Shown piece by piece: positions 59,509-63,005 of a DNA stretch of 64,000 bases (position 1 is its first letter; the number at the start of each line of letters is the position of its first letter). The notes under the pieces were generated by a model. The model had not been told where the DNA came from. It worked only from the letters and a program-made list of their open reading frames with translations, and searched no databases. A program made the position numbers and the translations under genes. The DNA is taken from NCBI RefSeq assembly GCF_047663525.1, contig NC_092588.1:142560001-142624000 (forward strand), given 5' to 3'. Source of the stretch: Anas platyrhynchos (Eukaryota; Chordata; Aves; Anseriformes; Anatidae).

Positions 59509-59889
59509 TGTTGAGGGATTTCTTGAAACAGCAAAAATCCCATGGCTTGCTGTAGCTGAGCAAACCAAGCTACCAGGGCAACTATGAGAAGTTCCCATGA
59601 CAGTGTTCCCACATCGCCCAATTGAGGAACTCAGAAAAATATTGTTACCAGTAGCTGGCTTCAAGGACAAGGTCTATGTGACTGCTAATCACAAGGGGGT
59701 TGTTTTCTTGCAGGTGGGGTTGTTTTCTTGCAGTTGTTTGTCTGAGTGCTTTTGACCAATAATCTTGTGTGAAACACTGTCCACCCCTGTTAAGTTCTCT
59801 ATAAAAGTTAGGCTATTCGGGCAATAAAATGGAGCATGATCTGACTCTACTGTGTGTCTGTCGTGCTTTCGGCCGTGCTTCCTGCAACA
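59509..59889 (+). repeat. 5' LTR of the VLDLR-carrying provirus
   Basis: 381 bp with terminal inverted repeat TGTTG/CAACA. It contains GACCAAT at 59754-59760, TATAAAA at 59800-59806 and AATAAA at 59823-59828. The poly(A) signal lies just before the expected cap site, so R is short, as in avian alpharetroviruses. U3 holds a short direct duplication of GTTGTTTTCTTGCAG at about 59699-59733. I saw no difference from the 3' LTR when reading side by side. Confidence 0.95.
59754..59828 (+). promoter_or_regulatory. LTR core promoter and poly(A) signal
   Basis: CCAAT box, TATA box and AATAAA in standard order and spacing. Transcription is expected to start about 25-30 bp after TATAAAA. Confidence 0.75.
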
Positions 59890-59891
59890 TA

Positions 59892-59909
59892 TGGCGCCCG
59901 AACAGGCTG
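59892..59909 (+). other. Primer binding site, tRNA-Lys type
   Basis: TGGCGCCCGAACAGG, two bases after the LTR. It matches the 3' end complement of tRNA-Lys(UUU) for the first 15 bases and then diverges. Confidence 0.9.
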
Positions 59910-60360
59910 AGACCTGAACAAGGCCTGAACAGGACATCGCAGCGGGACAGACATCGCACCGGAGCAGGACATCGCAGCCGAGCACGGACATCGCAGCGGC
60001 GCCGGGGCAAACATCGCAGCGCAGCGGGACACCAGCGGCGCCAGCACATCGGAACGCAGGTAGACCAGGAGACCAGCGGCGCCGGGACCGGCGGCGCCGG
60101 GACCAGCGGCGCTGAGATCTCGCCGCGCCGTCGGGACTTCGGAGCGCCCATCCGACCGGCGCTTGAGCAGACCGGACACCGGCCCGGACACACGGTACAC
60201 AGGCCTCACGGTGAGACGCGGTACTCCCGCTGAGAGACGCGGAAAACGGTGGGACACGGGGTTTTGCGGCGGGACGTGGAATTGCGGAGGGCCGCGGGAA
60301 ACGGAGTTGCGGCGGGACGTGGAATTGCGGAGGGCAGCGGGAAATTGACGTGATCACGGT
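59910..60360 (+). other. Proviral leader, GC-rich with short repeats
   Basis: No gag ORF. It is filled with imperfect repeats of GGCGCCGGGACCAGC and of CGGGACGTGGAATTGCGGAGGG (twice, about 60273 and 60314). A packaging signal is the likely function by position; this is inferred. A very short upstream ORF starts at 59891. Confidence 0.7.
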
Positions 60361-62565
60361 GTGATGCGGGACATCCGAGATCGAGTTGCTACGGGAGACC
60401 AGAGGCATCAGTGGACAACGGCAGCCGACCCTCACCGTGTGGCGAGTCGGCACAGAGCAGAGGGGCGGACATCAGGACCCTGCAGCCTGTCTGACGTAAC
60501 CATGGAGGCAGCGGCGGCTGTGCTGCTTCTCTTTGGCATTCTTTTTATAAGAGGTTTATCTTGCAATGCAAAAAAGACTATTCGTCCCCAGATCGGTGTT
60601 ATAACTATGTTTCTGGATAACATTCCGTGGGGTTGCCTCAGTCTACGGACTATTAATGACGATTTAGCTCTATTGCAGGGCAGGAGTGCAGAGACGCAGA
60701 TTACACTGCCAAATGACCACCGGCAGGCTCGTTCACAAACAGCTTCTAGGATTGCAGCTGGCACTGCCTGCAGCCGTATAGCAGACGTTACACTCTCTTT
60801 CCTAACTAGTAATCATGTGTCTTATCCATTTGTGGTGAATGGTCAGTGGCAAAAAGAAAAGGGGGAGAGTAAGGGGCGGCAAAGACAGAAACGGTACCAG
60901 GAGGATGCCACTGACACTACTAGCACGGGTAATAGGAGTAGTATAAGTGACATAGGTGCAGGGCGGCGGCAGGCACTGCCGCGCTGTGGGGCATTCTGCC
61001 TGCTGCTCGCCCTCACCTGCCTGTGCACTGCTGCCGACAGTGCTAGAGCAAAATGTGAAGACTGCTCAGACGGCAGTGATGAGAGTGCTTGTGTGAAGAA
61101 GACGTGTGCTGAATCTGACTTTGTGTGCAACAGTGGTCAGTGTGTGCCAAACAGATGGCAGTGTGATGGGGATCCGGACTGTGAAAATGGGTCTGATGAG
61201 ATTGCTGATCTGTGTTATACGAGAACATGCCAGGTAAATGAAATCAGCTGTGGTCCTCAGTCAACCCAGTGTATCCTGGTGTCCTGGAAATGTGATGGTG
61301 AAAAAGACTGTAACAGAGATCCTGATTACAAGGATGGAAGTGATGAAACTAACTGCCCTTCTCGGACCTGCAGGCCAGACCAGTGCAGATGTGAAGATGG
61401 GAACTGCGTCCACGGAAGAAGGCAGTGCAGTGGTGTGAGAGACTGTCTGGATGGCACTGATGAAGCAAACTGTAACGATGTTATTCAGTGCTCAGGACCT
61501 GGCAAATTCAAGTGCAGAAGTGGAGAATGCATAGATATCAATAAAGTGTGTAACCAGCAGAGAGACTGCAAGGACTGGGGTGATGAGCCCCTGAAGGAAT
61601 GCAACATACATGAATGTGACTGTCCAGCTGGGTTTGAGTTTGTAGACAAGAGAAACTGTGGAGATATTGATGAATGTCAAAACCCTGGTATCTGTAGTCA
61701 AATCTGTATCAACCTGAAAGGTGGCTACAAATGTGAACGTAGCCGTGGCTATCAGGTGAATCCTGCTACAGGAACCGGGAAAGGGCCATACTGGTACAAA
61801 AACACAAATAACACCTGTGATTACAATGACGCTGCTAAGCAGGGTTTAGGGGTTTGTAGCATGGAGACAAGGGGTAACAACTACAGTGTTTGGAACAATT
61901 GTGCAGCTTTGGCCTTACCTCCTGATGTGCTTCTGATTTGTGGGGATGGGGCCTGGCAAGGTATCCCTGCAAATGCTGTCAGATGTCCATGTTACTTAGA
62001 TAAACTCATTGTATTTGCTCCTAGCTTGTTACAGTTGCGTGAGATCACCAGACATAAATGGGCATTGCTTGCATTGGATTGCAATGATAATGTTGAATTG
62101 TGTGGGGTTGCAGCTAGAGCGGCATTAGTAATTTCAGTGCCTGGAGTGGCATCTGCGGCCGCACGTAACATCTTAGAAAAATTGGTATGCTGGGCCAAGA
62201 GGCAAGCCTATGCCACGACAGAGATACTTGAGGAGATGTTAGCAGATCAAAATAGTCTGCGACATCTGCTTTTACAGGATCAAGCTGCTATTGACATCCT
62301 GCTTTTGGCTCAAAGGAATGGGTGTGAGGACTTTAAGGGAATGTACTGTTTAAACCTTTCTGATCATAATGAGTCAATTCACAAATCCATTACTTTCCTG
62401 AAAGAGCATATGAGAAAGATTCAGTATGGTATCAATCCTTTCAATCAATGGTTCACTGACTTGTTTGAAACAAGGTGCAGATGGTTGCTGGGTTTAGTCA
62501 CAAGGGGATTAAGGATTTGGTTTATGGTGGTGGTAATCATCGTTGTGTGTTGTAAGTATAGCTAA
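60361..62565 (+). CDS. Chimeric Env with VLDLR ligand-binding ectodomain
   Basis: 734 codons without a stop. The first codon here is GTG; ATG follows at 60364, and the likelier start is residue 48 (ATG at 60502, context ACC-ATG-G), followed by a signal-like MEAAAAVLLLFGILF. Residues 48-205: Env-like leader of uncertain family, with a furin-like RQKR at 175-178. Residues about 207-471: VLDL receptor, namely its own signal peptide (209-226), an LA1 remnant (231-244), LA2 (249-285), a fused LA3/LA6 repeat (290-332), LA7 (337-371), LA8 (377-414), the end of EGF-A (419-433) and EGF-B (439-460). Residues about 472-734: C-terminal Env with Asn-linked sites, a Cys-flanked hydrophobic fusion loop (574-610), heptad/immunosuppressive-like region (about 630-655), a CX6CC-like site (655-663), a membrane anchor (about 717-731) and a very short tail. 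No introns in the VLDLR part. Whether the protein is made is unknown. Confidence 0.93.
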   Translation: MMRDIRDRVATGDQRHQWTTAADPHRVASRHRAEGRTSGPCSLSDVTMEAAAAVLLLFGILFIRGLSCNAKKTIRPQIGVITMFLDNIPWGCLSLRTINDDLALLQGRSAETQITLPNDHRQARSQTASRIAAGTACSRIADVTLSFLTSNHVSYPFVVNGQWQKEKGESKGRQRQKRYQEDATDTTSTGNRSSISDIGAGRRQALPRCGAFCLLLALTCLCTAADSARAKCEDCSDGSDESACVKKTCAESDFVCNSGQCVPNRWQCDGDPDCENGSDEIADLCYTRTCQVNEISCGPQSTQCILVSWKCDGEKDCNRDPDYKDGSDETNCPSRTCRPDQCRCEDGNCVHGRRQCSGVRDCLDGTDEANCNDVIQCSGPGKFKCRSGECIDINKVCNQQRDCKDWGDEPLKECNIHECDCPAGFEFVDKRNCGDIDECQNPGICSQICINLKGGYKCERSRGYQVNPATGTGKGPYWYKNTNNTCDYNDAAKQGLGVCSMETRGNNYSVWNNCAALALPPDVLLICGDGAWQGIPANAVRCPCYLDKLIVFAPSLLQLREITRHKWALLALDCNDNVELCGVAARAALVISVPGVASAAARNILEKLVCWAKRQAYATTEILEEMLADQNSLRHLLLQDQAAIDILLLAQRNGCEDFKGMYCLNLSDHNESIHKSITFLKEHMRKIQYGINPFNQWFTDLFETRCRWLLGLVTRGLRIWFMVVVIIVVCCKYS
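60976..61773 (+). other. VLDLR: Captured, intronless VLDLR segment
   Basis: Identified by order and wording of motifs: CGAFCLLLALTCLC (signal peptide), KKTCAESDFVCNSGQC (LA2), CPSRTCRPDQ (LA6/7), GPGKFKCRSGECIDI (LA8), CGDIDECQNPGICSQIC (EGF-B). Genomic VLDLR has introns between most of these modules, so the source was spliced mRNA. LA4, LA5 and parts of LA1, LA3, LA6 and EGF-A are missing. The beta-propeller, O-linked, membrane and cytoplasmic parts are absent. Confidence 0.92.
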
Positions 62566-62606
62566 AGAGTCACTTGTAAAACTGCTGTGTCGGGCTTGGT
62601 TTGCTC

Positions 62607-62624
62607 AAAAGAAGAAGGGGGAAT
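62607..62624 (+). other. Polypurine tract
   Basis: AAAAGAAGAAGGGGGAAT immediately before the 3' LTR, the plus-strand primer of reverse transcription. Confidence 0.9.
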
Positions 62625-63005
62625 TGTTGAGGGATTTCTTGAAACAGCAAAAATCCCATGGCTTGCTGTAGCTGAGCAAACCAAGCTACCAGGGCAACTA
62701 TGAGAAGTTCCCATGACAGTGTTCCCACATCGCCCAATTGAGGAACTCAGAAAAATATTGTTACCAGTAGCTGGCTTCAAGGACAAGGTCTATGTGACTG
62801 CTAATCACAAGGGGGTTGTTTTCTTGCAGGTGGGGTTGTTTTCTTGCAGTTGTTTGTCTGAGTGCTTTTGACCAATAATCTTGTGTGAAACACTGTCCAC
62901 CCCTGTTAAGTTCTCTATAAAAGTTAGGCTATTCGGGCAATAAAATGGAGCATGATCTGACTCTACTGTGTGTCTGTCGTGCTTTCGGCCGTGCTTCCTG
63001 CAACA
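62625..63005 (+). repeat. 3' LTR of the VLDLR-carrying provirus
   Basis: 381 bp, same length and, by eye, same sequence as 59509-59889. AATAAA at 62939-62944 serves as the poly(A) signal. Confidence 0.95.

What the first reader, a model, noticed from the sequence alone, without database searches (positions are those of the whole stretch)
59509..63005. Provirus with a host VLDL-receptor ectodomain fused in frame into a retroviral envelope
Seen: one 734-codon ORF between two LTRs reads leader, then VLDLR signal peptide, LA and EGF modules, then alpharetrovirus-like Env C-terminus with fusion loop and membrane anchor. Known: retroviruses capture cellular cDNAs, usually oncogenes, but a receptor ectodomain taking the place of the Env receptor-binding part is not something I know of. 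Inferred: the product would display a lipoprotein/vitellogenin/reelin-binding domain on a membrane-anchored fusion subunit.
Basis: partly seen in the sequence, partly recalled or inferred. Interest (0 to 1): 0.97.

Follow-up and report, generated by a model that had tools for sequence, protein, structure and literature searches.

The report
Duck retrovirus carrying host VLDLR gene
A young, repeatedly copied retrovirus relic in a duck genome carries part of the bird's own lipoprotein (yolk) receptor fused to the tail of a viral envelope protein, and some of its relatives have captured a second bird gene as well.

Summary
A 3,497-bp provirus (59509-63005) has identical 381-bp LTRs, a 6-bp target duplication and one 734-codon frame joining host VLDLR to an avian-retrovirus Env tail. 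Spliced mRNA was captured: six of seven native exon junctions are found joined. Corrections: the part before VLDLR is reverse transcriptase, not Env, and this copy's receptor is cut (LA1, LA3-6, EGF-A), though one other copy keeps the whole region. Gene models in Aythya, Mergus and Cairina share the fusion. A sister subfamily adds a second captured host mRNA, ZNF365 (52 places; the order gag-ZNF365-RT-VLDLR-Env checked in eight). Amino-acid change is near neutral, yet shared stops are few. Best reading: a non-autonomous element copied in trans, whose open frame matters more than its exact protein; display of a lipoprotein-binding domain is possible, unproven. A new variant of host-gene capture; seven library searches listed no description.

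The parts
59503..59508 (.). target-site duplication GCGAAC, left copy
   Evidence: same six bases directly after the right LTR
59509..59889 (+). 5' LTR, 381 bp; TATAAA at 59800, AATAAA at 59823
   Evidence: identical to 62625-63005; motifs; 1522 first-look candidates genome-wide, 40 scored (the window's two among them), all shown as 100% over the full length
59892..59909 (+). primer binding site, tRNA-Lys-like (15 of 18 bases of the recalled tRNA-Lys3 complement)
   Evidence: the tRNA assignment is recalled
59910..60501 (+). GC-rich, repetitive leader
60361..62565 (+). 734-codon open frame; in-frame ATG at 60364 and 60502
60502..60576 (+). hydrophobic N-terminus, signal-peptide-like, origin unknown
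   Evidence: hydropathy 2.18 at 60508
60577..60957 (+). fragment of pol (RT, downstream of the RVT_1 match), with small in-frame gaps against relatives
   Evidence: aligned to P0131, P0132, P0133, which carry RVT_1
60958..61048 (+). VLDLR N-terminus with the hydrophobic core of its signal peptide, now internal
   Evidence: resembles native VLDLR P0011; hydrophobic segment at 60985
61049..61098 (+). remnant of VLDLR LA1, 66 bases of its centre absent
   Evidence: blastn to native spliced exons, 6-base overlap at the break
61099..61215 (+). VLDLR LA2, six cysteines
61225..61356 (+). VLDLR LA3/LA6 hybrid; 354 bases from LA3 to LA6 absent
61366..61473 (+). VLDLR LA7
61486..61602 (+). VLDLR LA8
61603..61662 (+). 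remnant of VLDLR EGF-A, 60 bases absent
   Evidence: 7-base overlap at the break
61663..61773 (+). VLDLR EGF-B up to the 3' junction
   Evidence: EGF_CA in Pfam; the match to native exons runs to piece base 795
61774..62094 (+). C-terminal SU-like part of avian retrovirus Env
   Evidence: Avian_gp85 E 4.3e-11; P0125 without VLDLR and tortoise Env P0127 align
62095..62193 (+). internal fusion-loop-like hydrophobic segment between two cysteines
   Evidence: hydropathy and alignment; the name is by resemblance to ASLV, recalled
62203..62418 (+). TM core, like ASLV TM
   Evidence: PDB 4jpr and 5h9c, E 5.6e-17
62494..62550 (+). membrane anchor
   Evidence: hydropathy 2.24
62607..62624 (+). polypurine tract
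   Evidence: sequence next to the 3' LTR
62625..63005 (+). 3' LTR
63006..63011 (.). target-site duplication GCGAAC, right copy

Best explanation
It is a recently inserted member of a high-copy, non-autonomous endogenous retrovirus family of ducks. SHOWN: spliced host VLDLR mRNA was captured and now lies between a pol (RT) fragment and an Env tail. One frame reads hydrophobic N-terminus, RT fragment, VLDLR signal peptide with LA and EGF modules, SU tail, TM. The unit stands at many places in the genome, and the copies that could be dated are young. INFERRED: its RNA is made from the LTR, packaged and reverse-transcribed by proteins supplied in trans, and integrated. Template switching made the captures and the later module losses. 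The long frame is probably translated into a membrane-anchored glycoprotein with a shortened lipoprotein-binding domain. Near-neutral amino-acid change together with a lack of shared stops suggests that keeping the frame open, for instance for RNA stability, matters more for spread than the exact protein.
For: Identical LTRs and TSD; a related repeat copy at 54220 shows an uninterrupted target site. Native VLDLR lies in L009 with seven introns of 76-1411 bp; 6 of 7 exon junctions are found joined in the provirus with 0-3 mismatches in 20 bases, the seventh lies in the absent part. L002 keeps native positions 1-1212 in one block, so full capture came first. In 19 of 19 copies chosen and fetched, RT, VLDLR and Env pieces adjoin. 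419 first-look candidates for the VLDLR piece; the 40 scored, window included, span at least 792 bases at 98-100%. 33 of 150 PF00057 rows, window included, have open frames of 734-739 aa (my count). Gene models in Anas, Aythya and Mergus carry both junctions, one in Cairina the 3' one. Chimeras form one group (88) and join Anser VLDLR (87, ultrafast bootstrap). 13 LTR pairs give 8 mismatches in 3,724 sites. Shared changes relative to neutral: VLDLR 0.81, RT part 1.24, Env 0.96. Shared stops: 2 found, 10.8 expected, P 0.0015.
Against: No RNA or protein evidence was available. No helper was identified: the search with the gag-pol protein P0131 in this genome did not complete. The stop deficit may come partly from sampling: I chose copies from a list ranked by LA score that also showed open-frame lengths, and some copies are near-duplicates. 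Not all copies are open: stops or frame-shifting gaps occur in the RT piece of 8 and the Env piece of 6 of the copies examined (41 and 39), and stops in the VLDLR part of 3 of 42. Results for a needed protein: a cross-species protein test found LA cysteines and calcium ligands spared by shared change (2 of 80 against 37 of 247 columns, P 0.0014), and changes present in at least 90% of copies were 5 amino-acid-changing to 7 silent, 0.28 of neutral, P 0.046 (these may include changes of the native gene). The DNA test of cysteines alone did not confirm constraint (4 of 53 against 49 of 311, P 0.14).
Confidence: 0.8

Rival explanations
1. The fusion protein has a job for the element: a VLDLR ligand-binding domain on cells or on helper particles binds yolk lipoproteins and steers particles towards growing oocytes, favouring entry into the germ line.
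For: Signal-like N-terminus, LA2, LA7 and LA8, TM and anchor in one frame; many open copies; structural LA positions spared in shared cross-species changes; VLDLR is the oocyte yolk receptor in birds (PMC3162882, passages).
Against: Shared changes do not differ from neutral; LA1, LA3-6 and EGF-A cut in this copy; no furin-type site in the Env piece; no expression or binding data.
Confidence: 0.1
2. The host keeps some copies as a decoy receptor or interference gene against other viruses that use VLDLR or an LDLR-family receptor.
For: LDLR-family members are entry factors for alphaviruses (PMC10764363 and others, seen only in the listing).
Against: The copies dated are young and scattered, and copies vary near-neutrally; no copy was tested for conservation at one locus in several species.
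Confidence: 0.04
3. Assembly or library chimera.
For: None found; it was a fair concern for one copy.
Against: Both junctions in 19 of 19 fetched copies at different places, different target duplications, the same junctions in gene models of other duck species.
Confidence: 0.01
4. A neutral passenger pure and simple: the frame is open only because copies are young and one open master was copied.
For: Ratios not different from neutral in all three parts for shared changes; about 0.2% divergence of LTR pairs.
Against: Shared stops 2 against 10.8 expected; the three losses in the window copy are 66, 354 and 60 bases, all multiples of three; fusions in Cairina, Mergus, Aythya and Anas imply a long history in which stops could have spread.
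Confidence: 0.3

Closest known systems
CrocERV31 with captured nectin3 (PMC4299795; passages and section 10 read)
   Same: An ERV lineage that captured the mRNA of a host cell-surface protein, in several insertions, at the expense of env
   Different: There nectin3 replaces Env; here the receptor part is fused in frame to an Env tail, pol is reduced to a fragment, and a subfamily carries a second captured host mRNA
CrocERV KIT-ligand capture (same paper, passages)
   Same: Host mRNA captured by an ERV
   Different: No ERV domain was lost there; here gag and most of pol are absent from the window type
v-mpl of myeloproliferative leukemia virus (PMC5374145, passages)
   Same: In-frame fusion of Env and a host receptor
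   Different: Opposite order: the Env part is joined to the receptor's membrane and cytoplasmic part, most of the ectodomain lost; here the receptor ectodomain is joined to Env's membrane part
Avian sarcoma-leukosis virus Env
   Same: Avian_gp85 tail and TM similarity
   Different: No N-terminal SU seen, no furin-type site in the Env piece, Lys-like primer site (a Trp site is recalled for ASLV)

Membership tests
Integrated LTR retrovirus (ERV) | Paired LTRs and target duplication | tested here: met
Integrated LTR retrovirus (ERV) | Primer binding site and polypurine tract | tested here: met
   15 of 18 bases of a recalled tRNA complement; the polypurine tract by eye
Autonomous retrovirus | gag, pro and pol in the same provirus | tested here: not met
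   2.7 kb internal; the frame holds only a short RT fragment
Retrovirus that carries a host mRNA | Intronless host sequence joined inside viral sequence | tested here: met
   6 of 7 native exon junctions found joined
Retrovirus that carries a host mRNA | Copied as a unit | tested here: met
Acute transforming retrovirus | Captured gene drives cell growth | not testable with these tools
   VLDLR is not recalled as an oncogene
Alpharetrovirus | Env of the avian gp85/TM type | tested here: met
   Pfam PF03708 and PDB 4jpr
Alpharetrovirus | Genus placement by a pol tree | not tested
   pol fragment short; search with P0131 unanswered
Working retroviral Env | N-terminal receptor-binding SU and furin-type cleavage site | tested here: not met
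Intact VLDLR ligand-binding domain | Eight complete LA modules | tested here: not met
   LA1 remnant, LA3/6 hybrid, LA4 and LA5 absent here; whole region in L002

The most novel reading that the evidence does not exclude
A retroelement that collects host coding sequences one after another and keeps them fused in one open frame (gag, ZNF365, RT fragment, VLDLR, Env), and whose VLDLR-Env product steers particles to yolk-taking oocytes.
Probability: 0.1. Interest if true: 0.97.

Novelty: new variant of a known kind. Interest (0 to 1): 0.82.

Why it matters
Capture of host mRNAs by retroviruses is best known from single oncogenes (recalled). Here a germ-line family has copied a receptor-Env fusion many times, apparently kept it through the divergence of several duck genera, and in one subfamily carries a second host gene. 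It offers a natural series of steps (full capture, module loss, second capture) for studying how retroviruses acquire genes, and a testable question of why an open frame persists when the amino acids change freely. It also explains several 'VLDLR-like' gene models in ducks.

Tried and rejected
Reading the N-terminal part as Env: rejected, it aligns to RT proteins. Assembly chimera: rejected. Purifying selection on the captured domain: the all-column protein test gave nothing (16 of 56 against 109 of 324 columns, P 0.54). Splitting shared from single changes gave P 0.027 for LA cysteines, then 0.04 to 0.06 with filters. Adding calcium ligands, chosen afterwards, gave P 0.0014. The DNA test on 42 copies did not confirm it for cysteines. 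Structure prediction gave models too poor to use (mean pLDDT 40 and 34), so no fold search was run. Relatives in viral contigs: none by one protein scan and one DNA pattern. In one search P0001 (duplicated modules) and P0121, P0122, P0128 (short) were left out of the tree, and native proteins were cut to about 500 residues. In one search L003 is the native gene and was dropped from counts; L004, L006, L007, L008 and L041 gave no qualifying match. In one search the 5' LTR was not found in the stretch fetched for 5 of 19 copies; one pair with 12 mismatches and unequal target sites was left out of the mean as a likely recombinant; in several of the other 13 pairs only part of the 5' LTR lay in the stretch (117 to 381 sites compared).
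Full report
What is there. The provirus spans 59509-63005. Its LTRs are 381 bp and identical; GCGAAC flanks it on both sides. The right flank belongs to a repeat with other copies in the window; the one at 54220 runs without interruption through the target site. A primer site with 15 of 18 bases of a recalled tRNA-Lys3 complement, a TATA box, a poly(A) signal and a polypurine tract are in place. Between the LTRs lie a GC-rich leader and one frame, 60361-62565, with in-frame ATG codons at 60364 and 60502.

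What the frame is made of. (1) 60502-60576 codes for a hydrophobic N-terminus of unknown origin. (2) 60577-60957 is pol: it aligns to three proteins (P0131, P0132, P0133) that carry RVT_1, two of them with Gag_p24 and one with integrase domains, at 57-67% identity. (3) 60958-61773 is VLDLR. (4) 61774-62562 is the C-terminal SU and TM of an avian-type Env. Of 13 proteins found with it, 11 are VLDLR fusions or fragments of them in ducks; the other two are a mallard protein without VLDLR (P0125) and a tortoise Env at 45% (P0127). In P0125 the string around the 3' junction follows other sequence instead of VLDLR and shares a short stretch with VLDLR at the joint; that this stretch derives from the integrase tail is my reading, not a test (Pfam found no integrase in P0125). 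No RX[KR]R site was found in the Env piece, and its TM cysteine motif is incomplete compared with P0125 and P0127.

Origin of the VLDLR part. The genome holding the window has a contig (C5) of 69,322,033 bases, the length listed for the contig of the Anas platyrhynchos protein P0128, so the bird is taken to be the mallard. Its native VLDLR lies on C35 (L009) with exons LA1, LA2, LA3, LA4-6, LA7, LA8, EGF-A and EGF-B and seven introns of 76-1411 bp between them. Of the seven exon junctions six are found joined in the provirus with 0-3 mismatches in 20 bases; the seventh lies in an absent part. The capture was thus from spliced RNA. The signal-peptide exon was not located; that part was compared with the native protein P0011 only. 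Another copy, L002 on C34, matches the native exons from position 1 to 1212 in one block at 96.9%, so the entire stretch was captured first. Against it the window copy lacks 66 bases in LA1 (6-base overlap at the break), 354 bases from LA3 to LA6 (1-base overlap) and 60 bases of EGF-A (7-base overlap) (lengths from the offsets). Such overlaps fit reverse-transcriptase jumps (inference).

How widespread. The LTR has 1522 first-look candidates in the genome; 40 were scored, all shown as 100% over the full length, the window's two among them. The VLDLR piece has 419 candidates; 40 were scored, window included, all at 98-100% over at least 792 bases. Of 150 PF00057 matches listed, 33 including the window lie in open frames of 734-739 aa (my count). 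In all 19 copies first chosen and fetched (L010-L028) the three pieces adjoin as in the window. For 14 of these 19 both LTRs were read, some in part; leaving out one likely recombinant with 12 mismatches, 13 pairs give 8 mismatches in 3,724 sites, about 0.6 million years at a recalled rate of 1.9e-9. Equal 6-bp target duplications were seen in four of these copies besides the window. Older copies such as L001 and L002 were not dated.

Other ducks. Gene models in Anas, Aythya and Mergus carry both junctions, and one in Cairina the 3' junction followed by Env-like and, by my reading, LTR sequence. Some of these models are visibly mixed with neighbouring sequence. A protein tree of the VLDLR part groups the chimeras (88) and joins them to Anser VLDLR (87, ultrafast bootstrap), with Cairina, Mergus and then Aythya with Anas branching in that order. 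This fits one capture before these ducks split, followed by copying within lineages; movement between species is not excluded, and no native VLDLR of a duck was in the tree.

A second captured gene. In eight fetched copies (L046-L048, L095, L097-L100) the order gag p24, ZNF365-like part, RT fragment, VLDLR, Env is found in one reading frame up to the middle of Env; in L096 the gag match lies in another frame. Searching with the ZNF365-like part, all 64 candidates were scored and 58 rows matched. By my count these are 52 places of the retroviral kind (45 over residues 1-161 or 1-162, one of these with a stop), three rows of the native gene on C6, two rows that extend one place already counted, and one weak match. 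The two native exons lie about 8.4 kb apart on C6; in the provirus they are joined with a small deletion, the stretch just before the ATG also matches (PAPPRRR when translated), and the step into the RT fragment falls on 11 bases, TGCCTGCAGCC, present in both parents and at 60765 in the window. The gene name rests on a UniRef label and recall. The ZNF365 capture came into a lineage that already held VLDLR, or met it by recombination (inference). LTRs of this subfamily were not examined.

Selection. On 42 copies compared with the native exons, changes shared by two or more copies were 59 amino-acid-changing and 28 silent, 0.81 of the neutral expectation (P 0.40); changes in one copy 71 and 36, 0.76 (P 0.20); changes in at least 90% of copies 5 and 7, 0.28 (P 0.046), a class that may include changes of the native gene. 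For the RT part (41 copies) and the Env part (39 copies) shared changes gave 1.24 and 0.96, not different from neutral. Stops among shared changes were 2 against 10.8 expected (P 0.0015), among single changes 8 against 12.5 (P 0.12). In the window's frame stops were met in the RT piece of 4 copies and the Env piece of 4, frame-shifting gaps in 5 and 3, and stops in the VLDLR part of 3. Copies were chosen by me from a list ranked by LA score that showed open-frame lengths, and some are near-duplicates, so these are indications. A cross-species protein test favoured constraint on LA structure (P 0.0014, positions partly chosen afterwards); DNA data for cysteines alone did not confirm it (P 0.14).

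How it probably works. Shown: a captured cDNA, an open fusion frame, signals for transcription and reverse transcription, and repeated insertion. Inferred: RNA is packaged and copied by proteins from other elements; the frame is translated into a membrane protein. Since amino acids drift but stops seem to be avoided, I think an open frame serves the RNA, for example by escaping nonsense-mediated decay, which is known for Rous sarcoma virus RNA (recalled). A direct use of the lipoprotein-binding part, for instance through oocyte yolk uptake, is attractive because VLDLR is the yolk receptor of bird oocytes (PMC3162882, passages), but rests on no data here.

Known work. Crocodile ERVs captured nectin3 and KIT ligand (PMC4299795; passages and section 10). 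v-mpl joins Env to a receptor in the opposite order (PMC5374145, passages). A survey of duck ERVs has no occurrence of VLDLR, lipoprotein or 'captur' in its main text (PMC11067759, terms searched and passages). Seven searches of the held library listed no paper whose title or abstract start tells of a VLDLR-bearing ERV; the library holds open-licence papers only.

Noticed in passing
L046, L047, L048, L095, L097-L100; 52 places by my count: Sister subfamily with a second captured host mRNA, ZNF365, between gag and the RT fragment, in frame with VLDLR and the first half of the Env piece.
   Followed up: partly
window 50121-51059, 53095-54524, 56444-57434, 59134-63361: The provirus sits in a repeat whose other copies lie nearby in direct and inverted order.
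   Followed up: partly
window 37382-39025 (-): 547-aa open frame with Patched and Sterol-sensing domain matches, probably a host gene exon.
   Followed up: no
window 7436-7861 (-): 141-aa frame with a short protein-kinase match.
   Followed up: no
G000 contig C34 (16.0 Mb): Many copies in the lists and the most complete capture seen (L002) lie on this contig; it may be the W chromosome (inference).
   Followed up: no
P0127, Gopherus evgoodei: A tortoise Env is the only relative outside ducks found for the Env piece, 45% identity.
   Followed up: no
P0002, P0007, P0014, P0034 and similar: Public 'VLDLR-like' gene models in ducks look like retroviral fusions, partly mixed with neighbouring sequence.
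   Followed up: partly
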